Source: Candidatus Gastranaerophilales bacterium (GTDB lineage Bacteria; Cyanobacteriota; Vampirovibrionia; Gastranaerophilales; Gastranaerophilaceae). From it: DNA of 33,676 bases. Below the pieces are notes generated by a model, which did no database searches, was not told where the DNA came from, and worked only from the letters and a program-made list of their open reading frames with translations. Location of the stretch: assembly GCA_944324215.1 (NCBI GenBank), contig CALUVP010000087.1:1-33676 (forward strand), written 5' to 3'. Positions 2,613-29,685 of this stretch are shown piece after piece (the first letter of the stretch is position 1; every line of letters begins with the position of its first letter). Both the position numbers and the translations under genes were made by a program.

Positions 2613-3653
2613 TTATACACTCTCCTCTATGTATTGTGCAACAATGTCCGCTACACGCAATGGTAAGTCTGAATATTCACCGTCATATGATTGTAAGATA
2701 AATCTTTTTACTAAAGGACGTTCATTTTTTATCACGCGTTCAATTTTTTCTCTTGAGGTTGTTTTATATATTCTTAATAAATCTCCTAATATATTCTCCT
2801 TAGTTAGTTTTTTCTTTATAGGAAGATACTCTTTCATCTCTTTCAAACAACTTGATATTAAATCTCCATCTAAATGAGATTCCAGATCTGCCATATTCAT
2901 ATACTGTGAAATTGCAAGAGAATCATTTGAATCAAACTTATTTAGTATTGTTGTGACCTTATCTTGAGAAAGTATTTTTAAAACTAAAGCTAAAGTCATT
3001 AGCTTCATTTGCTTATTACTTATGCCTTGAGGCATTGAAGCTAGTGCTTTTTCTTGTTTTCTTTTATTGCGTTTTTCTTCTCTTCTCTTCTCCGCTTCTT
3101 TTAAATTCTTTTCTGATTCTTCAGCCGCCGCCATTTTTTGACGCATTTGTTCTTCTTGTGCTTGTTTAGCCATAGCATCAATGTTAGACTGACTTTCTGC
3201 ACGATTTTTAATAGTTTCGTCAATGATACCTTTTTTCTGCAGCTCTTCTATACTTGAATTATAGACTTTAATTACATGGTGTTCAACAGCTTGTAAAAGT
3301 TGGTCTTGCGGTATTTTTCTTATTTCAGCTTGTTTTGCTACTTCAAATATTGTAAATGCAATTTTTTGCATTATACTATCCCAATATTGAGGCAGGATAC
3401 CTGAATGAATTAAGTCTATTGACTTATGAAAAGACCACTCTGCTATTACTTGAGTTATAAATACCGCCTGGTCTGCTGTTAGATTTAGCTGAGTATCATT
3501 ATATAAAGCTTCTCCTGCTAGTAATGTAAAATTACCCAGTGTTTTTACTATATATTCTTTTTCTTGGTCTTTAAGCTCTTTGGGAACAAGTTCTTTCGCT
3601 TGCTCTGTCATTGACGATGCAAATGCTTTATAATCAAATCCTTCTATTGGCAT
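2613..3653 (-). CDS. FliG-like flagellar protein, non-canonical architecture
   Basis: This is the first gene of the leftward fliH-flhA operon, in the place where fliG often stands. The 346 residues match FliG in length but not in layout. Residues 1-150 are a helical domain that I do not recognise. Residues about 150-205 are a highly charged Glu/Lys/Arg coiled coil. Residues about 206-346 resemble the N-terminal domain of FliG: a short helix ending in LALVLKILSQDKVTTILNKF, then helices around residues 245-320 and a terminal helix (ADIVAQYIEESV). The typical FliG C-terminal torque helix with its charged residues is not evident. Start ATG at 3653 has AAAGGA about 8 nt upstream. It may be a lineage-specific switch or export protein rather than the rotor FliG. 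The flagellar role rests on operon position plus weak similarity read by eye. Confidence 0.55.
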   Translation of the reverse strand: MPIEGFDYKAFASSMTEQAKELVPKELKDQEKEYIVKTLGNFTLLAGEALYNDTQLNLTADQAVFITQVIAEWSFHKSIDLIHSGILPQYWDSIMQKIAFTIFEVAKQAEIRKIPQDQLLQAVEHHVIKVYNSSIEELQKKGIIDETIKNRAESQSNIDAMAKQAQEEQMRQKMAAAEESEKNLKEAEKRREEKRNKRKQEKALASMPQGISNKQMKLMTLALVLKILSQDKVTTILNKFDSNDSLAISQYMNMADLESHLDGDLISSCLKEMKEYLPIKKKLTKENILGDLLRIYKTTSREKIERVIKNERPLVKRFILQSYDGEYSDLPLRVADIVAQYIEESV

Positions 3654-13503: not shown

Positions 13504-16479
13504 ATGCAAAAGTATAAAGTAATAACATTTATATTAATTTTACTAACTATAACATCACCTAAAGTTAAAGCTAATGATATTCAAGTAAGTACTTTTAACG
13601 AACTTATAAATTCCCATCCAATAAGCGGAGATACAATAGAATTTCTTGATAATTTAACATCCGATTCAACTATCGGATATAATTTTTATGGTTTAAACAT
13701 AAGTTTTGAAGGTCAAAATTACTCTGTAAACGGAAATAACACTTTTGGCGGTTTCGTATTAAATCAGGACAGCTTGTTCAATCAAATAAAAATGATTAAT
13801 TGTAAAGGGCAAGTATATAATAATTCAAATTTCGCAGGTGCTGTATATAATAGCGGCGGAGAGATGAATGTTAACAACTCAACTTTTAGCGGTAATTTTG
13901 CAGATTCAGGCGGAATTAACTATGGAGTTGGAGGAGCTTTATACAATTTGAATGGCGGATATATAAACATAAATAATACTTTATTTGAAAATAATTACAC
14001 AAATGGAGCATCTTCTTATGGTGGAGCCATTGCTAATGGATATCAGGCAGGAACTGCTGCTGATATGAGTATTAGTAATTCCATATTTAAAAACAATCAT
14101 GCAGAAGGTTCAGTAATTCCTTATGGTGGAGCTTTATATAACAATGGTGAATTATCAATTACCAAAACTTTATTCGATGGTAATTTTGCACAAGGAGAAA
14201 GAGGTTCCTACGTTTCAGGAGGAGCTTTATATAACGAAGGCTCTACAACTATTTCACAAAGTAAATTCTTCGACAACAAATCTATTGGTTTAGATTATTC
14301 TTCAGTAACCGGAGGCGGTATTTATAACACCAAAGATTTAACTATTATTGATACAACGTTTACGAACAATAGCGGTAGTGCAACTGATAATTCAATTGTA
14401 GTCGGGGGAGGAGTTTATAACACAGGAAATGTAAATTTACAAAACGCCGATTTTTCATTCAATATAGCAGAAGGTGGTAATAATACAAATGTTTTAGGAG
14501 GAGCTCTTTATAATAATAATTCTTTTCAAATTTCAAATTCTCAAATAAATTCAAATTCAATAATTGCAGGAAATAGTTCTGATGCCGCTGGCGGCGCTAT
14601 TTACAATATTGGAACCGGAGTTATAGAAAATTGTATCTTATCAAATAATCTTGCAAAAGGAGGAACTACTGATATTAAAGGCGGAGCTATTTATAACAAT
14701 TCCTCTCTACAAATAATTTCAAGTACAATCTCAGAAAATACAGCAGAATCTTCTTCTACTGCTGAAGGCGGGGCTATTTATAATAATACAAATGGTATTA
14801 TCACAGTCAAAAACTCAACACTTTCTGAAAACAAGGTTTCCATAACTGCTCAATCCGGAGAAGGTGGAGCTATATATAATGCAGGAATAATTAACCTTGA
14901 AAATACCACTCTTACTGAGAATTATGACAGGAATGGAGAACTCAACGATATCTATAATGCAGATGGAACAATTAATTTTACCGGAAGTGAAACGAATAAT
15001 ATTTTAAGTGGAATTTCAGGAACGGGTATCATTAATAAAACTAATGACGGAATTTTAAATTTAGGCGGAATAAACAATAACTATAAAGGAAATTTCAATT
15101 TTGAAAGTGGAACGTTAAATCTTCTAAAGAATTCCAGCTACTTCTCCGCTCAAAATTCAGTCTTTGGAAATGACGTAAATTTTAACATGCAAAACGGAAA
15201 TATAAACAATATAAATTATGGTAATCTAACGCTAAACGGACAGACCAACCTATTTGTTGATGCAAATTTATCAACACAAATAATGGATACTATAAATGCC
15301 AATAGTTTTAATGGCAATGGCATTTTTTATGTCAAAAATATTGCAACAGAAGGGATTCCTGAACAACAAAAAATTATAATTCCATTTGCAGATTCTACAT
15401 TAAAAGACCACGTTAGTTATACTCCAACTACACTTGAGACACCAATTTATGATTATAACGTAAGTTACAACAGTTCAAACGGAGATTTTGAATTTATAAG
15501 AGGAGGCTTTAGCTCTGCTATACTGACTTCAGAAGTAGCAACACAACTTGGCGGGTATCTTGTACAGTTGGAAACATACAAAAATATTTTCGCAAATCTT
15601 GATATGGTAATGATAACACCTCCAAATAAATTAAAAAGTTTTGCATTTCAAAATAAAATGGCTGCTTCTACAGGACAAGTTGCCTTCTCTCCTCTATTAA
15701 TACCTGAAGAAAACAAAGGTATTTGGATAAAACCATATACTACTTTTGAAAAAGTTCAGCTAAAAAATGGTCCAAATGTTTCTAACGTTATATATGGAAC
15801 TCTACTTGGCGGAGAAAGCGATTTAAAAAAACTTAAAAGAAATTGGTATGGTTTATATGGAGCATATGTCTCTTATAATGGTTCTCATCAAGCATATCAA
15901 GGGAATAGTATTTACAGTAACGGCGGAATTTTAGGTTTGGATGCTGCCTTATATAAAGGAAATTTTTTCTCTGCTTGGACTATTAATGTTGGAGCAAATG
16001 CTGCAGAAGCTAGTACTATCTTTGGACAGGATAATTTTTCTATGCTTAACGCAGGTGTCGCGCAAAAATCGGGATACAATTGGGAACTCGCAAACAATAA
16101 AATCATTATTCAACCTAATATTATGACATCGTACACCTTCATAAATACTTTTTCATACACCACCTCCTCAAATGTAGATATTAATACACAGCCATTACAC
16201 GCTTTACACATAGAGCCCGGCATAAAAATTATAGGAAATTTTAAAAACTATTTTCAGCCATATTTATCTGTTTCTGTCGCTTGGAATTTGATAGACCATG
16301 CAAAATTTAAAGCAAACGATATTTATCTTAGTGATTTATCAATAAAACCATATATACAGTATGGTGTTGGTATTCAAAAACGCTGGGGTGAAAGATTTAC
16401 TGGCTTTATAGAAAGTATGATAAGAAATGGTGGTCGAAATGGTATCGCTCTTATGTTTGGGATTAGAATTAGTATCTAA
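13504..16479 (+). CDS. Autotransporter adhesin with GGAIYN-type beta-helix repeats
   Basis: Type V secreted surface protein of 991 residues. A Sec signal peptide is clear (residues 1-23, MQKYKVITFILILLTITSP then VKA before ND). The passenger, about 100-500, contains about 12 turns of a repeat with consensus GGA(I/L)YN every 30-36 residues, each followed by a strand like IxxSxFxxN. This resembles polymorphic outer-membrane-protein/right-handed beta-helix repeats. A linker with FNFESGTLNL-type strands follows, and the C-terminal translocator barrel spans about 735-991 (GIWIKPYTTFEKVQLKNG, WYGLYGAYVSYNG). The barrel ends MFGIRISI, so the usual terminal aromatic residue for BAM recognition is replaced by Ile. 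No catalytic motif is seen in the passenger; adhesion is likely. The start lacks a ribosome binding site. Confidence 0.88.
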   Translation: MQKYKVITFILILLTITSPKVKANDIQVSTFNELINSHPISGDTIEFLDNLTSDSTIGYNFYGLNISFEGQNYSVNGNNTFGGFVLNQDSLFNQIKMINCKGQVYNNSNFAGAVYNSGGEMNVNNSTFSGNFADSGGINYGVGGALYNLNGGYININNTLFENNYTNGASSYGGAIANGYQAGTAADMSISNSIFKNNHAEGSVIPYGGALYNNGELSITKTLFDGNFAQGERGSYVSGGALYNEGSTTISQSKFFDNKSIGLDYSSVTGGGIYNTKDLTIIDTTFTNNSGSATDNSIVVGGGVYNTGNVNLQNADFSFNIAEGGNNTNVLGGALYNNNSFQISNSQINSNSIIAGNSSDAAGGAIYNIGTGVIENCILSNNLAKGGTTDIKGGAIYNNSSLQIISSTISENTAESSSTAEGGAIYNNTNGIITVKNSTLSENKVSITAQSGEGGAIYNAGIINLENTTLTENYDRNGELNDIYNADGTINFTGSETNNILSGISGTGIINKTNDGILNLGGINNNYKGNFNFESGTLNLLKNSSYFSAQNSVFGNDVNFNMQNGNINNINYGNLTLNGQTNLFVDANLSTQIMDTINANSFNGNGIFYVKNIATEGIPEQQKIIIPFADSTLKDHVSYTPTTLETPIYDYNVSYNSSNGDFEFIRGGFSSAILTSEVATQLGGYLVQLETYKNIFANLDMVMITPPNKLKSFAFQNKMAASTGQVAFSPLLIPEENKGIWIKPYTTFEKVQLKNGPNVSNVIYGTLLGGESDLKKLKRNWYGLYGAYVSYNGSHQAYQGNSIYSNGGILGLDAALYKGNFFSAWTINVGANAAEASTIFGQDNFSMLNAGVAQKSGYNWELANNKIIIQPNIMTSYTFINTFSYTTSSNVDINTQPLHALHIEPGIKIIGNFKNYFQPYLSVSVAWNLIDHAKFKANDIYLSDLSIKPYIQYGVGIQKRWGERFTGFIESMIRNGGRNGIALMFGIRISI
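13837..14930 (+). repeat. About 12 beta-helix repeats in the autotransporter passenger
   Basis: Repeats are marked by AGAVYN, GGALYN, GGAIAN, GGGIYN, GGGVYN and GGAIYN cores spaced about 30-36 residues apart. The last four cores are identical at protein level (GGAIYN). At DNA level the units are diverged outside the core, so this is an old array, but the core codons could still support recombination between units. Confidence 0.8.
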
Positions 16480-21060: not shown

Positions 21061-24000
21061 TTAAGAGCCTAGAAATGAGCTATATTGTTGCTGCATATTT
21101 CCAATAAGCATATCCATAGAAGCGAATTTGTTTTCTAAAGAAATTTTGTATCTTTCAATAGCTCTATTGGCTTTTTCAATATTAGAGTCAATTTTTTTGA
21201 TTTCATTTTGATAAGAATTATTTGCAATATCGAAATATCCGGAAACAGATTTTAGAGATTCTTCCAGTAAGTTTTCAACTTGAACTAAAATTCCATTATA
21301 ATCATCTATATTAGTAGCATTCCCAACTAATAGTTTTTTGATTTCATTACTATCTGAAGAGTATGCTTCTAAGAATTTTTCTTTATCAAAGTGTAAGTTA
21401 ATGATACTTTCATTAGAAGTAGAAATATTATTAGCACTAGCAGAAGATACGGAAATTCCTATTGCGTCAAGGTTTCTAAATACGGCAGAATCACTTACAG
21501 TGCTTGTCATCAATGAACGTAATCTGTTTCTAATCATTTTCAAGGCAGATTGATCGTGTAAAGTTCCACTGGTAGAAATAGCTTCATCGACATTTTCCAT
21601 CAGTTCATTGTAAGCATCAACGATGTCAGAGATTGCATCTGCAACTTTTTCTTTATCTTTTTCTATAGTAACAGTTACAGCAGAGCCATCTGTAAGTCCT
21701 TTTAGATCAAGAGTAACGCCTTCTATCCTCGAAATATCGCTGGTAATCATATTAGACGTAGAAGTATAAGAAACGCCGTTAATTTTAAACTTAGCATTAT
21801 CTCCAAGAATTTGGTTATCTATTTGCATACGAGTTACTTTAAGAGAACCGTCAGCATTCCATTCGGAAGAAGTGTATCCCATAATATCCGTAAAATTACT
21901 AGTTCCGGCTTCAATATTTATTAAGGCTGCTCCAGTTGTTCTGGATGTAATTACAAGTTTACCATCAATGTTATCCCAGTAGGCTGTAGCATTAGCTTCT
22001 TCTGAAGAATTAATTTGCGAAATTATATCAGAAATTTTAGTTTTATCATCAATAATAATTTCTTGATTGCCGACATAGAAATTACCTTCAGTAATGTTGC
22101 CTTTTCTGAATAAATCTGAATCAGTAACAAGTGAATTTGCGTTAACTTTATAAAGTGCTCTTGAACTTTCAGTATTTCCTGTTTCAAGATTTTTTGAAAG
22201 CCCTGTGATTGCAAGGATATTAGACGTATCAGTAGTTGTTCCTACTTCTACATTAACACCATCTGCTTTTGAGTATATTATTAATTTTCCATTCTCAAAT
22301 TTCAGGTCTACATCAGAGAATTTAGAAGAAATTTGAGATCGTAGGTCTGCAAAAGTTTTATCTGACTCTATGTTAACTATTGCCTTTTCTCCGTTTCTGA
22401 AAATAGAAAGCGTTCCATCAGAAATATTTAAGGTAGACAATTTAGTATTCATATCAGCGTAATTAGCAGCAGAAAGTGTATATTCTTCAAGAGTTGTTGT
22501 AGTTTGCGTAACATCTGTAGAGCTTTCCATAAAACCATCAATTTTATCTTTGTCAGTAAGGAATATATTAGCATTAGGATTTATGATAGAAGAAGTTGTT
22601 TTTGCTGTATCGATAGAGAAATTATGCATATCACTGATGTATAATTTACCACCACTAAAACTAGCTTCAACTCCGGCTTGCTGTAATTTTTCTACTAGAG
22701 AGCCAAAAGTCTCATCTGCGGAGATATTTATAACTTTATTTTCGCCGTTTACGCTAAATACTAAATCTCCTGCCGATGTTAATGTAGAGCCTCCCCACGG
22801 AGTGTCAAAAACGCTAATTAAAGTATCCTCTGTAGCTGTAGATGTAGTTGTAACTGTTGTTATAATTTGTTCTATACCGCTATAATTGAACATTTCATCA
22901 GGAGAATCTGTTCCAAATAATTTTTCTACTATATTAGATGAATTTGCAACACTGTTTGATTTAGCTATATAAGAATTTCCAGACCCTTTTATTACAAGTT
23001 TTGTGTTGCCGTCTTTGTTAATCAAGCCAGTCTGTATGCCAAAAGAGTTAAGAGTATCCAAAAATGACCCTAAAGTTTCATCTGAAGATATAATAGCAGT
23101 ATGTTTAACTCCGTTGTTATAAATGTAATATTCACCGGTAGTTACGCCTAAAGCTGAAAGCAAAGTATCTCTGGTTGCATTAACAACAGTAGTATTTATT
23201 TCCGTAGTAGCCAAATTACTTGAAATCTCATAAGATTTGTTATAAGCACCCATCAAGTATGAACCGAGTGTGCCTGAGATGTCAAAATCAACAAGAGAAT
23301 TGGAGCTTACAGAAAACTTCCCTTCACTATTTATGAATGCTGAAATACCTTGTGAAGAAAGGTAGGAAAGTACATTTCCAAGAGTTTGAGTCTTAGAGAA
23401 GTTGACGGTCAGGTTTTTAACAGTTCCGTCTTCATCTTTAGTTTGAACTACTAATGCTGCATTACCAGAAGCATCAAAGTTGATTTTTGTTCCATCAGAA
23501 TACTCAAGGTTTTCCAATTTTGTATCAGATGTTGCAAAAACCAGATTAGTAGCAGAAAGACTTGCTGTTGTAGTATTTGAATATATAGTTTTAGTGGTAT
23601 TAGAAACAGCACCAAGGTTTAAGATATCAAGAATATTAGATCCTCCGGAAACTGATTGTAAATAGACATTACCATTACCAGTTATGCTTACACGACCCTG
23701 AGTATCGACATTTCCGGTAAGTCCATAGCCGGAAATTTGATCAAAGAAATCTTGCAAAGTACCAGTAGCATTTATACTTATAGTAACAAACGAACCGTCA
23801 TCTTTGTGTATAGCAATTTTTCCATCGCCGTTTGAATATCCGTTCAATTTATTCAGCACTGTTGTTTGGGTGAGTAAATTTGTAGTAATTTCATTTAAAC
23901 TTGAGGAGCTTGTGTTTTCGTAATGAGTATTACCTGTAGTATTATATGTATAACCATTTCCGACGCCTGCAAGCTTAAAGATATTTTTCAAATTATCGCT

Positions 24001-27000
24001 CATCGATTCAACCCAGCCGGTGCTATTCCCTGATATATTAATTTTCCCATCAGAAGTTACAGAAATTGATGCTCCAATAGGTAAAGCGCTGTTTATAGAA
24101 GATAATGTATTAGAGGATGTTACAGTAATAGTCTGAGAAGAACCGTCTTTATTTTTAACAGTTATTGTGGCATTAGAGCCAAGTCCTAAATCCCCTAATG
24201 TTGTATTGGAGTTTGCAGTAGTTGTTCCAATGTTTTGCTGCTTGTTAGAGTTGGTATTTCCAATGACAAGCCCTTCTGTCACATTATAATTCTTATCAGG
24301 ATCATCAGATAGGTGGAAGATGTCTTTAAAAGTAGAGCCCATAGCTGTAATATAATTGCCGTTGCTTCCGCTAATGGTAAGCTTTCCATCGCTTACAGAA
24401 GCCGTAAACCCTTCCACGTTATTATTCACCCAATTAACAAAATCATTAACCGTACTTTCTGATGTTGCTGTGAAGTAATGCATTTTTTCACCCAAATCGA
24501 TATTAGTATTAAATACATTTGTACTGCCAGTGCTGAACCCTAAATCAGTCCATTTTGTATCACCGCTAAGGGTTTTTACCTCACTTGAGCCCAACATATC
24601 TGAGGTGGTATTAGTTTTTGTGGTATCTGTTATTACGGTATAAGTAGTACCGTTGCCAGTGTAGATTCCAAAAGTTTGTGCTAGTACTCTTTCCATATCA
24701 TAGATATAATAACCTGATGCTGCGCTTACATAAAGCTTACCATCAGTCCAGTAGGCTGTTATTCCTCCTTTATCTCCTAGCCAACTTGCAAAATCACCAA
24801 TTGTGGTACTTGAATTGACTGTAAAGTTATATGAGGTATTTGTACCGTTACTGCCTATTGTTACATAATAATAGCTGTTTGTTAGTCCAAGGTCATAAAA
24901 AGTTGTATCGGAAGTAACAGTACCGGAACTTACGGTAGAGAAATCGCCAGAAAGTTTCAATTTGTCTTTTAATGTTGTATCAAAATATGATATGTATACA
25001 GATTCAGGATTTTGACTGGTAAACGTTAGTTTTGTTGACGGATAACCATTAAAATATCCGTTTGTATATGAAACAGTAATACTATTATTATTCATAAAAT
25101 CAGCGAAGTCATCAAAGTCAGTTGTGCTGCTAACTGTAAACTGTTTTAGGCTGGATGTCCCATTTTGAACAAAAGTGAAATTATAAGTACCGTTTGTAAT
25201 ACCTGTACTATTAAGTTTTATTGTCCCATTGATTGGATGATAATCCATAGTACCTCTGGTAACAGCATAAGTAGTAGTTCCATTTTTATAATAAGTCTGG
25301 TTAGAGATTGTGTAGGAAGAGCCATTCCCTGTATATAGTCCTAAATCATACAATAGTCCCGTTGTTGCGCCGGTTATGTAGGTATCTCCTCCTTCTATTG
25401 TAATTCTACCATCACTTACGGTCGCGGTTATTCCAATTGATGATAACTTAGTAAAAAACGTTGCTAATGTGTCAGTAGAAACAACAGATATTGTAGCAGT
25501 TTGACCATTATAATTTATATTAACGCTTCCATTGGATGGAAATCTTGAACTAATATCAGTAAGTTTTGTACTTTCATTGATTTTGGTTTTTATCGTCTCT
25601 GTTGAGGATACAATAGTTTGTTTTGCTATTAGAGTTGTTGTTTCCCAATTGCTATAGTAAGAATCGCCAAATTTACCAAAACCCAAGTAGTCGTGACCAT
25701 AATCTTTATCATTTCCTCCGGAAGATTCGACACTAGACATAAAGTGTAGGTAATGGTTTTTGTCACCGCTAAAAGTTATTTTCCCACCGGAAATAGAAGC
25801 TGATACTCCATAGTTTGATTGTATGAAGCTCAAAAGATCTCCTATAGTAGATGAAGAAGTCACAGTGTAAGTTTTGTGAGTAGAAATTTCATTTACATAT
25901 CCCCAAACACCTATTTTATCACCTACTTCAAGAGTACCCTTCGATTCATCAGCTTTGCCTAAAAATCCTACAAGTTTAGTAGAAGATGTAGCAGTAGCTC
26001 CGCTGGTTGTTGTGAGCAACTCTCCGGTACATGTTGCTCCGATTGTCATTGTGGCATGCCCTGTCGCTGTTTTTGTTATACCTAATGCATCAATCACATC
26101 ACCTTCAAGATAGACATTTCCAGTGCTTTGATTAGTCTGTGTAGAATTAGGAGTATTCGTCAAAGTCAAGACCCCCTGATTCATCGAGGCTGATATTACA
26201 CGGTTAAATGATAGGTCTGTAAATTCAAGGCCATTAAATACGTTTAAGCTAGCATTACTGGATAGGGTTACTGTTTTTAATATATTTCCGGCAGAAGATT
26301 TTATGTAAATATTTTTATCGATAGTATCCCAATCCTCTATTATGTCGGCAAATTTTGTATTAAGGGTTGCATTAGAATTTGAGGCAAAAACAACATCTCC
26401 GGTTTGGGTAATCCCTGTAGTTACTATAGTATTATATGACGTTGTTGTGATACTCAAGTCTTTTGCAGCACCTGTTGTTGTATCAATATAAAATTCAGGA
26501 TTATAATTTGAGAAAGTAAATTTGCCACTGCTTGAATCATACGACATAGCTATACCAAACCTATCGTACAAATTTGCTCCCAATGTACTAAAAGTATCAG
26601 AAGTTGATATTGTTAGAGTTTCAGAATAACTAGGATCTCTGTTACTTTTTATAACCATATAGCGAGAAGTGGAATATATATAATCAGCTACTGTGCTATC
26701 CAATGTTGCCGTTTCTGTACCGTATTCTGTCCATTGAATTCCAGCAGTAGAAGTGTTTGACTTTGCAACTGTAACAGTTCTGTATAAAGTAGAGCCTGTG
26801 CTATAAAGCCCTTCTGTGTTAGTTGTTATATTGTTTTGAACATCCCAACCTATAGCTTCTGCAAATCCGCCAATGACATATCTTTCATTACCTGACGATA
26901 AAGATAATGTATCGTTAGAGTTTATGGTCATATTAATACCCCAACTTTGTAAGCTATCTTTTAAGTCTCCAAATGTCATTGTATCTGTAATCGTTATTGT

Positions 27001-29463
27001 ACCAAGACCCCAACCACCTTGGTGTTGTATAATCAATTCGTTATTGGAACTTGTTAATGTAACGGCAGATGTGATATAAGTATCTTCTGTAATATCAGCA
27101 CCTACTGTATAATATACTGTGCTGGAGGATGTTTGAGAAATTCCGGTTGTAGTTCTCGTATCTGATATTGTTTGGGTTGTTATTCCAAGTTTTGATAGAA
27201 TTCCTCCTGACGTGTAATCTTCAATATAAGCACCATTTGTGGAATTAAAGACTAATCTTCCATCAGACATTGTTACAGATACTCCATAGTGCCGGATTTC
27301 AGAAAGTAAATTATAAAAAGTCGTAGATTCTGTAACAGTATAATCATAAGATGAACCGGGTGAAGTATGTATGGTAATTTTATTTTTATTGATATTAGAA
27401 TCAAGTTCTACAAAATCACTTATTAAAGAGCTTCCCTCCGCAACTGCTGTAGATGTGTAAGTAAGTGACGCTGTAGAAGTTATTGTAGCTCCAACTGTGC
27501 TGCCGCTGGAAGAACTGTTGATTCCAAAACCAAGCAGATCTGCTAATTCTCCAGAAACATAATAGTCTGAAGATGTTAGTGAAATAACACCGTTTGATAT
27601 TGAGGCTGTTATACCGTAGTCATCAAGCATTCCGAATAAATCATCAAAAGTTTGTGAATTGCTTGTTATTGTTACTGTTCCAACATAATTTCCATTTTCT
27701 TTGGTTTTAATAACCATCGTCTTTCCGCTGGCATCAATTCCTGCTTGTTCAAAAGTTGATGTACCTTCTATAGCCTTAGTTTCTGTATAACTGATAGGTG
27801 AGGAGGATGATTGGTTAGTGGTACCTGTTACAACAGACGATGTTCTAGAGATTCCCAACTGTTCTACAATGCCACCGCGTACCCAGTTACCATTAGATGA
27901 GTTGAGGGTTATTCGGCCTTCATTTATACTGCCTGTAATTCCATAATTTTCCAGTTGTAAAAATATATCATTGATACTTGTTGCCAAATTGACTGATATA
28001 AGCCCTTCACATTGATTATCAGAATTAAAGACTGCAAATTGATAACCATCATCTGCCATTTGGAAAATATCAATACCTAACTCTCGCATTGTATTATCGC
28101 CTGTTGCGTAAGTAACTTCTTTGGAATATAATACATTCCCTTCTGCTGTTATATTACCTGTATTATTAGAGCCGCTTTGTATTCCAAGAGCCTCTGCTAC
28201 ATTACCACTCACAGAGCCGCCGCTAATAGATAAAATCCCGCTAGAACTTAAAGAAGCTGAAAGACCTGCTGAATTAAGCTCGTCTACAATGTCTCCTATT
28301 GTCATTGTGCCGTTTACATTTATAGTAGTTTCATTTCCATCAGAATCTTTTGCAATAATTACAGGATTTGAGCCTACACTGTCCCAAGCAGTCAGGTCTT
28401 CTAATTTTGTATCAGAAGTTGCTTCTGTAGTTGTTGTAACAATTGTTTGGAAATTCAAATCCCCTGACGTTTGAGTTTTTGAATAAATATCTGTTTCTAG
28501 CCCTAAAGCCTCCATTATTCCTGTGTTTGAGCTATCTATTATTTCAGCATCAGTAATAGTAAGCACACCATCACTGGATAGGTTCGCATCTATGCCGTTT
28601 GCATGAAGCTCGTCCAGTAAGTCTTTTATCGTAGTATTTTCGTCTATGTGTATCGTATATTGTGTGTCATTAGCATTAACCGTAATATCACCCGCATTAA
28701 TTTCTCCTAAATCAGAAATTTTTGTATCTTCAGTTGCTGTGCTTACGATTGTTTCTGTAGTTGAATATTCAAGAGATTTACTTTCATATCCGCCAATCTC
28801 CCCTAAATGCAAAGCATCAATTATTCCGGTTCCAATAGATCCATCATCTTGTACGGCTAATGTATCATCAATCGCTCCATTATCTAAATTAATTCCAAAT
28901 ACACCCGTCTTTTCGTTGAAACTTGCGTCAACTCCTATTCCGTTAAGTTTTTCTATAAAACTACCTATTGTGTCATTTTCTTCTATCGATATGATATGTT
29001 GTGTCCCTGATACTGTAATCCCAATATCTCCAGTTTTTACTCCAATATCTACTAATTTTGAGTCTATAGTAGCGGTAGTTGTCTGAACAATAGTGTTAAT
29101 AGCTTGAAAACCACTCATCGCTTGTGTGCTGGTGGCTAAATTATCAATTAAAACTTCATAACTGGCTTCTTCAGCTTCACTTGTTGCGGTAGCTGTTAAT
29201 AAATTTGTGTTGGAAGAGCTTGCAAGTTTTTGAGCAAACAAATCCATCGAAACTACCCCAAATTTTGCATCAGTAACTTTTTCTATTACTGATCGAAATG
29301 AATTGAAGAAAGATTTTATACTATTTAGAGTCTCTTGCGATAGCAAAACATTCTCTTTCTCTTCTTCAAGCTGGTCAACTTTGGCTTGCTTTACTGAGAC
29401 AAGAGAATCAATCCATGATGATGTATCTATTCCTGATGCTAATCCGCTAAATGATATGCTCAA
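21061..29463 (-). CDS. fliD: Giant flagellar cap protein FliD with about 21 tandem repeats
   Basis: FliD (HAP2) forms the pentameric cap that folds flagellin at the filament tip and often acts as an adhesin. Known FliD proteins are mostly about 450-700 residues; this one has 2800. The N-terminal domain is standard: SISFSGLASGIDTSSWIDSL, then helices to about residue 90. The C-terminal domain (about 2545-2800) is also standard: RMQIDNQILGDN, SRIEGVTLDLKG, DAYNELMENVDEA, then the final coiled helix ending QQYSSFLGS. Between them, residues about 131-2544 hold about 21 diverged repeats of about 115 residues. Each runs TKLxDL, a beta-strand pair, a TIGDFLDxLxxYGI segment, SxSDGKITI, and a GxxxxLGL-type end, resembling the Flagellin_IN (hook-IN) motif. 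The repeats are rich in Ser, Thr, Asn and Gly. The start is TTG at 29463 with AGGA upstream; no ATG fits. It ends 3 nt from convergent serB. Confidence 0.93.
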   Translation of the reverse strand: MSISFSGLASGIDTSSWIDSLVSVKQAKVDQLEEEKENVLLSQETLNSIKSFFNSFRSVIEKVTDAKFGVVSMDLFAQKLASSSNTNLLTATATSEAEEASYEVLIDNLATSTQAMSGFQAINTIVQTTTATIDSKLVDIGVKTGDIGITVSGTQHIISIEENDTIGSFIEKLNGIGVDASFNEKTGVFGINLDNGAIDDTLAVQDDGSIGTGIIDALHLGEIGGYESKSLEYSTTETIVSTATEDTKISDLGEINAGDITVNANDTQYTIHIDENTTIKDLLDELHANGIDANLSSDGVLTITDAEIIDSSNTGIMEALGLETDIYSKTQTSGDLNFQTIVTTTTEATSDTKLEDLTAWDSVGSNPVIIAKDSDGNETTINVNGTMTIGDIVDELNSAGLSASLSSSGILSISGGSVSGNVAEALGIQSGSNNTGNITAEGNVLYSKEVTYATGDNTMRELGIDIFQMADDGYQFAVFNSDNQCEGLISVNLATSINDIFLQLENYGITGSINEGRITLNSSNGNWVRGGIVEQLGISRTSSVVTGTTNQSSSSPISYTETKAIEGTSTFEQAGIDASGKTMVIKTKENGNYVGTVTITSNSQTFDDLFGMLDDYGITASISNGVISLTSSDYYVSGELADLLGFGINSSSSGSTVGATITSTASLTYTSTAVAEGSSLISDFVELDSNINKNKITIHTSPGSSYDYTVTESTTFYNLLSEIRHYGVSVTMSDGRLVFNSTNGAYIEDYTSGGILSKLGITTQTISDTRTTTGISQTSSSTVYYTVGADITEDTYITSAVTLTSSNNELIIQHQGGWGLGTITITDTMTFGDLKDSLQSWGINMTINSNDTLSLSSGNERYVIGGFAEAIGWDVQNNITTNTEGLYSTGSTLYRTVTVAKSNTSTAGIQWTEYGTETATLDSTVADYIYSTSRYMVIKSNRDPSYSETLTISTSDTFSTLGANLYDRFGIAMSYDSSSGKFTFSNYNPEFYIDTTTGAAKDLSITTTSYNTIVTTGITQTGDVVFASNSNATLNTKFADIIEDWDTIDKNIYIKSSAGNILKTVTLSSNASLNVFNGLEFTDLSFNRVISASMNQGVLTLTNTPNSTQTNQSTGNVYLEGDVIDALGITKTATGHATMTIGATCTGELLTTTSGATATSSTKLVGFLGKADESKGTLEVGDKIGVWGYVNEISTHKTYTVTSSSTIGDLLSFIQSNYGVSASISGGKITFSGDKNHYLHFMSSVESSGGNDKDYGHDYLGFGKFGDSYYSNWETTTLIAKQTIVSSTETIKTKINESTKLTDISSRFPSNGSVNINYNGQTATISVVSTDTLATFFTKLSSIGITATVSDGRITIEGGDTYITGATTGLLYDLGLYTGNGSSYTISNQTYYKNGTTTYAVTRGTMDYHPINGTIKLNSTGITNGTYNFTFVQNGTSSLKQFTVSSTTDFDDFADFMNNNSITVSYTNGYFNGYPSTKLTFTSQNPESVYISYFDTTLKDKLKLSGDFSTVSSGTVTSDTTFYDLGLTNSYYYVTIGSNGTNTSYNFTVNSSTTIGDFASWLGDKGGITAYWTDGKLYVSAASGYYIYDMERVLAQTFGIYTGNGTTYTVITDTTKTNTTSDMLGSSEVKTLSGDTKWTDLGFSTGSTNVFNTNIDLGEKMHYFTATSESTVNDFVNWVNNNVEGFTASVSDGKLTISGSNGNYITAMGSTFKDIFHLSDDPDKNYNVTEGLVIGNTNSNKQQNIGTTTANSNTTLGDLGLGSNATITVKNKDGSSQTITVTSSNTLSSINSALPIGASISVTSDGKINISGNSTGWVESMSDNLKNIFKLAGVGNGYTYNTTGNTHYENTSSSSLNEITTNLLTQTTVLNKLNGYSNGDGKIAIHKDDGSFVTISINATGTLQDFFDQISGYGLTGNVDTQGRVSITGNGNVYLQSVSGGSNILDILNLGAVSNTTKTIYSNTTTASLSATNLVFATSDTKLENLEYSDGTKINFDASGNAALVVQTKDEDGTVKNLTVNFSKTQTLGNVLSYLSSQGISAFINSEGKFSVSSNSLVDFDISGTLGSYLMGAYNKSYEISSNLATTEINTTVVNATRDTLLSALGVTTGEYYIYNNGVKHTAIISSDETLGSFLDTLNSFGIQTGLINKDGNTKLVIKGSGNSYIAKSNSVANSSNIVEKLFGTDSPDEMFNYSGIEQIITTVTTTSTATEDTLISVFDTPWGGSTLTSAGDLVFSVNGENKVINISADETFGSLVEKLQQAGVEASFSGGKLYISDMHNFSIDTAKTTSSIINPNANIFLTDKDKIDGFMESSTDVTQTTTTLEEYTLSAANYADMNTKLSTLNISDGTLSIFRNGEKAIVNIESDKTFADLRSQISSKFSDVDLKFENGKLIIYSKADGVNVEVGTTTDTSNILAITGLSKNLETGNTESSRALYKVNANSLVTDSDLFRKGNITEGNFYVGNQEIIIDDKTKISDIISQINSSEEANATAYWDNIDGKLVITSRTTGAALINIEAGTSNFTDIMGYTSSEWNADGSLKVTRMQIDNQILGDNAKFKINGVSYTSTSNMITSDISRIEGVTLDLKGLTDGSAVTVTIEKDKEKVADAISDIVDAYNELMENVDEAISTSGTLHDQSALKMIRNRLRSLMTSTVSDSAVFRNLDAIGISVSSASANNISTSNESIINLHFDKEKFLEAYSSDSNEIKKLLVGNATNIDDYNGILVQVENLLEESLKSVSGYFDIANNSYQNEIKKIDSNIEKANRAIERYKISLENKFASMDMLIGNMQQQYSSFLGS
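21832..29073 (-). repeat. About 21 hook-IN-like repeats in FliD (residues 131-2544)
   Basis: Repeat boundaries were taken at recurring TKL/TLxxL starts, e.g. TKISDLGEI, TKLEDLTAW, TFEQAGID, TKFADIIED, TKLTDISSR, TFYDLGLTN, TLGDLGLGS, TKLENLEYS and TLLSALGVT. Each is followed about 30 residues later by a helix such as TIGDLLSFIQSN and about 45 residues later by SDGKLTIS-like strands. Lengths range from about 100 to 135 residues. I see no near-identical neighbours at DNA level, so the array looks old rather than a recent expansion. The last unit (about 2436-2544) corresponds to the one ordinary FliD proteins carry before their C-terminal domain. Confidence 0.8.
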
Positions 29464-29685
29464 AACTACATCCTGTTCTGTTTTACTACATTACATTTGA
29501 CTATACAAAATTCTATTATTTTCCTTGGAGTAAATTCTTCTAAGGTAGAACCTTATATGTATATACTAAACCATAACATCTTCCTTGAGGAAGTTATAAT
29601 ATTACTATATTATATATACATTATAACATGAGTTTATATTATTTCAAGTACTATCCGGTATGCAAATCTGTGTAATTTGTTATTA

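What the first reader, a model, noticed from the sequence alone, without database searches (positions are those of the whole stretch)
21061..29463. Giant FliD: a flagellar cap protein expanded to 2800 residues
The window encodes one unbroken FliD with standard cap termini and about 2400 residues inserted between them, some four to five times the usual length. If it still caps the filament, five copies would put about 12,000 residues of extra Ser/Thr/Asn-rich beta domains at the tip. Inference: a tip-mounted adhesin or glycan-binding array, possibly glycosylated, rather than a mere folding cap.
Basis: partly seen in the sequence, partly recalled or inferred. Interest (0 to 1): 0.92.

Follow-up and report, generated by a model that had tools for sequence, protein, structure and literature searches.

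The report
Giant flagellar cap paralog with repeats
A group of gut bacteria related to cyanobacteria carries, besides its normal flagellar tip-cap protein, a second cap-like protein whose outer domain has been copied from 2 to as many as 45 times (2,800 residues here, up to 11,051 in relatives), apparently to hang long, fast-changing protein arms from the flagellar tip.

Summary
Window 21061-29463, minus strand, encodes one unbroken 2,800-residue protein with FliD_N and FliD_C ends. It is not an assembly error: 45 of 65 genomes of the same genus (Candidatus Gastranaerophilales, Melainabacteria; gut and rumen MAGs) carry such frames, up to 6,133 aa, and other genera of the family reach 11,051 aa. 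(1) The same genome has an ordinary 578-aa FliD, so this is an accessory paralog; all 33 complete giants with both ends form one clade (99% support). (2) The insert is no foreign domain but 19 extra copies of FliD's own ~105-aa D2/D3 beta-grasp head domain (21 here, 2 in ordinary FliDs). (3) The ends are under strong purifying selection while the middle diverges and seems to be exchanged; in one genome two giants share near-identical ends around unrelated cores, and many longer relatives add GLUG beta-solenoids. Best reading: a flagellum-exported cap paralog that displays long, variable arms at the filament tip for adhesion. Tip location, ligand and expression are untested; glycosylation has no specific support. 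A new variant of a known kind.

The parts
21061..29463 (-). giant fliD paralog CDS, 2,800 aa, TTG start, stop at 21061-21063
   Evidence: start position matches ATG/GTG starts of orthologs
29128..29436 (-). FliD_N (PF02465), residues 10-112: N-terminal part of the cap D0/D1
   Evidence: E 1.9e-15; dN/dS 0.04-0.14 between relatives where it could be computed
21826..29076 (-). array of 21 beta-grasp repeats (~105 aa each), residues 130-2546
   Evidence: repeat HMM; fold match to FliD D2
22474..29106 (-). stretch absent from the ordinary FliD, residues ~120-2330 (19 extra repeats)
   Evidence: ordinary FliD residues 119-577 align to 2331-2798 of this protein
24214..26913 (-). variable core, residues ~851-1750: few or only distant (about 30-39%) matches in other giants, although the flanks match 30-40 of them
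21826..22458 (-). the two repeats that correspond to D2 and D3 of the ordinary FliD, residues 2336-2546
21088..21804 (-). FliD_C (PF07195), residues 2554-2792: D1/D0 with long C-terminal helix
   Evidence: E 8.3e-37; AF2 helix at model residues 537-595
29620..29647 (-). promoter-like sequence TTGAAA-16-TATAAT, conserved upstream of 12 giant fliD genes
   Evidence: DNA alignment
29471..29474 (-). AGGA, likely ribosome-binding site 7 bases before the TTG start
   Evidence: read from sequence, conserved as GCAGGA

Best explanation
The gene encodes an accessory flagellar cap protein ('FliD2'). After one duplication of fliD in an ancestor of this genus and a sister genus, one copy stayed ordinary (two head domains) and does the filament-capping work; the other kept the D0/D1 ends that let FliD be exported by the flagellar secretion system and sit on the filament tip, while its D2/D3 beta-grasp head domain was multiplied in tandem. 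Exported through the flagellar channel, it caps some filaments, or joins mixed caps, and projects arms of about 21 beta-grasp beads each (roughly 80 nm if extended, assuming 3.5-4 nm per bead). The arms bind surfaces, mucus or other cells. The ends are held constant while the arm sequences drift, change number, gain GLUG solenoid modules and are exchanged between loci, as expected of a variable surface display. Shown: architecture, homology of the repeats, co-existence with an ordinary FliD, single origin, end-versus-middle difference in constraint. Inferred: export route, tip location, arm length, adhesion.
For: FliD_N/FliD_C ends. Repeat HMM: 21 copies here, 7-35 in related giants, exactly 2 in each of 9 ordinary FliDs of the genus and about two in ordinary FliDs from across the class. 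AF2 models show beta-hairpin/helix/beta-hairpin units; the best structural matches for single repeats are flagellar outer domains (FlgK, Vibrio flagellin, FliD D2, Z 6-7.6). The C-terminal model's first 20 PDB matches are FliD or cap complexes. Genus survey: 57 ordinary, 45 giant, 40 both, of 65; all 65 have flagellins. Tree: 33 giants monophyletic, 99%, sister to ordinary FliDs. dN/dS 0.02-0.14 at the ends, 0.09-0.48 in the middle. L044 and L080 of one genome: N-terminal 115 aa identical and matching C-terminal block, middle 30-50%. GLUG-like arrays in 18 of 44 giants. Published: FliD D2/D3 are interchangeable and dispensable for filament formation, so D1 can carry added domains (PMC8533109); FliD of P. 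aeruginosa is implicated in mucin binding, though direct binding is unproven (PMC4009794).
Against: No expression, location or binding data. This protein has no recognised ligand-binding domain, only beta-grasp units. The ends are only ~40-52% identical to the ordinary FliD, so they may no longer assemble on the same filament. Secreting 2,800-11,000 residues through the flagellar channel has no tested precedent known to me. No flagellar or adhesin operon surrounds the gene. 20 of 65 genomes of the genus show no giant, some of them 99% complete, so it is dispensable.
Confidence: 0.6

Rival explanations
1. Secreted or surface matrix protein: the FliD ends serve only as a flagellar export signal and assembly into caps is lost; the protein is released and forms a sticky extracellular matrix.
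For: The ordinary FliD is present in most of these genomes and can do the capping. The most extended relatives in sister genera (3,000-11,051 aa) keep FliD_C but lack a clear FliD_N.
Against: In this genus both ends are kept at dN/dS 0.02-0.14, the C-terminal half of the cap core included; an export signal alone would not need 245 conserved C-terminal residues.
Confidence: 0.2
2. Specialised cap for one of the several flagellins (5-19 Flagellin_N hits per genome): its large head chaperones flagellins with unusual outer domains rather than binding anything outside.
For: Own genome has 8 Flagellin_N hits, and a few long flagellin frames exist (1,380 and 1,113 aa).
Against: Flagellin multiplicity is similar in genomes without a giant (G010 9, G019 8, G042 9 hits). 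Variability of the array core and exchange of cores do not fit a chaperone role; D2/D3 are dispensable for assembly in known FliDs (PMC8533109).
Confidence: 0.12
3. Mis-assembly or chance ORF joining separate genes.
For: Genomes are MAGs; one relative (L072) has a run of N inside its giant locus.
Against: Dozens of independent assemblies hold giant frames; an ortholog aligns over the whole length; synonymous change far exceeds non-synonymous change.
Confidence: 0.02

Closest known systems
FliD (HAP2) flagellar filament cap, e.g. Salmonella 5H5T, Campylobacter 6SIH
   Same: FliD_N and FliD_C ends, D2/D3 beta-grasp head domains, long C-terminal helix
   Different: 21 head domains instead of 2; 2,800 aa against roughly 450-800; second copy beside an ordinary FliD; variable core
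Giant flagellins (>1,000 aa) of marine gammaproteobacteria (PMC6248924)
   Same: enlargement of the surface-exposed outer domains of a flagellar axial protein between conserved ends
   Different: those are filament subunits present in thousands; the paper's text has no mention of FliD
Giant RTX adhesins (e.g. AhLap, 5,047 aa, PMC12077191)
   Same: tandem extender domains with ligand-binding domains budding from split domains; GLUG inserts of larger giants often follow the first strand motif of a beta-grasp unit in a comparable way
   Different: type I secretion and outer-membrane retention there; flagellar cap ends and beta-grasp extenders here; no RTX match in Pfam
Flagellin_IN / FliD-FlgK-FlgL beta-grasp domain (Burroughs et al. 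2007, PMC1949818)
   Same: the fold and family of the repeat unit
   Different: known as one or two copies, not long arrays, to my knowledge

Membership tests
FliD (HAP2) flagellar cap | FliD_N domain at the N-terminus | tested here: met
   PF02465, residues 10-112, 57.7 bits against cut-off 24.8
FliD (HAP2) flagellar cap | FliD_C domain at the C-terminus | tested here: met
   PF07195, residues 2554-2792, 127.3 bits against 25.4
FliD (HAP2) flagellar cap | D2/D3 beta-grasp head domains between the ends | tested here: met
   repeat HMM and structural match to FliD D2
FliD (HAP2) flagellar cap | usual size (about 450-800 aa) with two head domains (usual, not strictly defining) | tested here: not met
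   2,800 aa, 21 head domains
FliD (HAP2) flagellar cap | the one cap gene of a flagellated genome (usual, not strictly defining) | tested here: not met
   ordinary 578-aa FliD at G000:C94 as well
FliD (HAP2) flagellar cap | oligomer at the filament tip, needed for filament growth | not testable with these tools
   needs microscopy, proteomics and mutants
RTX / type I-secreted giant adhesin | RTX nonapeptide repeats and C-terminal T1SS signal | tested here: not met
   no RTX or T1SS family among Pfam matches to E 1; the C-terminus is FliD_C
Autotransporter adhesin | C-terminal autotransporter barrel | tested here: not met
   no barrel family in Pfam; the C-terminus is FliD_C

The most novel reading that the evidence does not exclude
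A polymorphic display system on the flagellar tip: conserved FliD ends act as fixed anchors and recombination sites, while exchangeable arrays of beta-grasp beads, GLUG solenoids and in one case an acyl-carrier domain are swapped between loci to vary what the flagellum touches or shows to the host, with related proteins of more than 11,000 residues per subunit.
Probability: 0.3. Interest if true: 0.92.

Novelty: new variant of a known kind. Interest (0 to 1): 0.8.

Why it matters
FliD was known as a compact cap of about 450-800 residues. Here one bacterial family has turned a FliD paralog into a very long tandem-domain protein, among the longest flagellar axial proteins I know of. If it sits on the filament tip, the flagellum doubles as a pole for large adhesive arms in animal guts, and it raises testable questions: can the flagellar export channel pass chains of 3,000-11,000 residues, can mixed caps form, and is the tip a variable surface antigen? 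I found no paper describing it in the held library.

Tried and rejected
Mis-assembly or chance ORF: rejected by dozens of relatives. Foreign adhesin domains in this protein: none found; Pfam hits to ubiquitin-like families are beta-grasp look-alikes. Recent tandem duplication at DNA level: none, repeats are 22% identical on average. Conserved operon around giant fliD: none; the minCDE/serA surroundings in the window are not shared. Known RNA element in the window: none. Flagellar sigma-28-type promoter: a loose pattern matched only two ordinary genes, no giant. Glycosylation by composition: not distinctive. The first alignment of four middle repeats (A2) was too gappy and was replaced by aligned triplets (A4). 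A FliD length survey in other phyla was not possible. Literature: no paper on giant, large or long FliD found.

Full report
Observation. The reported coordinates hold one open frame on the minus strand, 21061-29463, TTG start, 2,800 aa. Pfam gives FliD_N at residues 10-112 (1.9e-15) and FliD_C at 2554-2792 (8.3e-37). The start is supported by GTG or ATG at the same place in relatives, and by a promoter-like TTGAAA-16-TATAAT and an AGGA box conserved among 12 giant genes.

Where it comes from. A genome-collection scan with the C-terminal region returns Candidatus Gastranaerophilales (Melainabacteria) MAGs, several named for rumen, horse faeces or yak colon. Some Gastranaerophilales are known from gene content to be flagellated (PMC4040986). 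The window's own genome (2.07 Mb, 176 contigs, 94.8% complete) has FlhA and FliH in the window, eight Flagellin_N hits and rod/hook/junction-type proteins.

Not the only FliD. The same genome carries an ordinary FliD of 578 aa at contig C94. Across 65 genomes of the genus, 62 have FliD_C; 57 have an ordinary frame (567-639 aa), 45 a giant frame (800 aa or more, some cut by contig ends), 40 both, 17 only the ordinary; 14 carry two or three giants; 35 frames exceed 2,000 aa and 15 exceed 4,000. Five genomes show only a giant, but four of these are 81-90% complete, so this is inconclusive. All 65 have flagellins. In 289 genomes of the class most FliD frames are about 475-800 aa, and frames above 1,000 aa occur only in this family.

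How big it gets. Complete frames with both FliD ends reach 6,131 and 6,133 aa. In sister genera, FliD_C-bearing frames reach 7,267 and 11,051 aa; these have FliD-like C-termini (hhalign probability 99.6%, 5e-25) but only a doubtful FliD_N (48%), so I count them as divergent relatives, not as proven FliD.

What the insert is. A profile built from the repeats finds 21 units of ~105 aa at residues 130-2546, and exactly two in each of nine ordinary FliDs of the genus, near 124-228 and 229-334; ordinary FliDs from across the class also hold about two. The ordinary residues 119-577 align collinearly with residues 2331-2798 of the giant. So the giant is an ordinary FliD with 19 further copies of its head domain set after the N-terminal leg. 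AF2 models (mean pLDDT 77 and 74; some linkers under 50) show beta-hairpin, helix, beta-hairpin units joined by uncertain linkers. In a structural second look nearly all best matches for single repeats are outer domains of flagellar proteins: FlgK Z 7.6, Vibrio flagellins 6.4-7.0, FliD D2 6.3 over 94 residues at 2.9 A; these Z values are moderate, and the sequence profile is the stronger evidence. Pfam's Flagellin_IN is hit in 5 of 63 repeat triplets (best 2.5e-8). A beta-grasp domain in FliD, FlgL and FlgK was described in 2007 (PMC1949818).

History and constraint. A tree of joined N- and C-terminal regions places all 33 complete giants, from two genera, in one clade (99%), sister to the ordinary FliDs of the same lineage: one duplication, kept since. 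Between relatives dN/dS is 0.02-0.14 at the ends and 0.09-0.48 in the repeats; synonymous sites are near saturation in several pairs, so values are rough. Along this protein, similarity to other giants is about 50-70% at the ends and falls to few or distant hits in residues ~850-1750. In genome G018 two giants share an identical N-terminal 115 aa and a matching C-terminal block, while the middle is 30-50% identical; a third, in G035, matches one of them in large blocks. This points to exchange of cores between loci with shared ends, though shared ends can also mislead MAG assembly. Other genomes with two giants do not show such identical ends, so this is one clear case, not yet a rule.

Added modules in relatives. 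18 of 44 giants have five or more GLUG-like motifs, and Pfam's GLUG family (PF07581) is hit in tested inserts with E-values down to 1.9e-35. 42 inserts were mapped; 11 begin with a strict first-strand motif of a beta-grasp unit (background 0.000), 27 with a loose one (background 38%), suggesting that many are set inside a unit. In RTX adhesins, domains budding from such split domains are the ligand-binding ones (PMC12077191). The window's protein has no GLUG.

Mechanism. Published work shows FliD D2/D3 can be swapped or removed without loss of filament formation (PMC8533109), which makes head expansion permissible, and FliD has been implicated in mucin adhesion in P. aeruginosa, though direct binding was not shown (PMC4009794). 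I therefore favour an accessory cap that displays long arms at the tip (0.6), over a released matrix protein (0.2) or a flagellin-specific cap (0.12).

Verdict. The finding stands and is larger than described: a lineage-wide giant FliD paralog family made by amplification of FliD's own head domain. The tip-adhesin reading is plausible but unproven; glycosylation is unsupported.

Noticed in passing
G316:C5:16001-49156 (loci L154 and L155): Intact 11,051-aa open frame with FliD-like C-terminus, 45 detected repeats and many GLUG-like motifs; a 7,267-aa one in G321:C6 (L158, L159).
   Followed up: partly
L052:12090-13472 (-), giant FliD of G014: Acyl-carrier-protein domain (PP-binding, 2.6e-12) embedded in frame in a GLUG insert of a giant FliD; odd for an exported protein.
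   Followed up: partly
window 13504-16479 (+): 991-aa protein with a Chlamydia PMP-type repeat match (1.1e-6); a similar protein lies in L090 of the same genome.
   Followed up: no
window 29464-29600 (-) and leaders of giant fliD genes in alignment A5: Leader of ~130 nt shared by many giants with conserved GTAGCGATG, TTACCCC and AGCAGGA blocks; possible post-transcriptional control.
   Followed up: partly
G025:C1:20021 and G028:C6:87: Flagellin_N matches in frames of 1,380 and 1,113 aa: long flagellins in the same genus.
   Followed up: no
L153: Contig of a MAG labelled Ruminococcus encodes part of a giant FliD C-terminal region (53%); probably mis-binned.
   Followed up: no
L072:5291-12733 and L074:7784-16444: Long frames (2,480 and 2,886 aa) beside partial giant fliD frames; in L072 a run of N lies nearby, so these may be parts of one interrupted giant gene.
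   Followed up: partly
window 2613-3653 (-): 346-aa gene beside fliH and flhA without any Pfam match.
   Followed up: no
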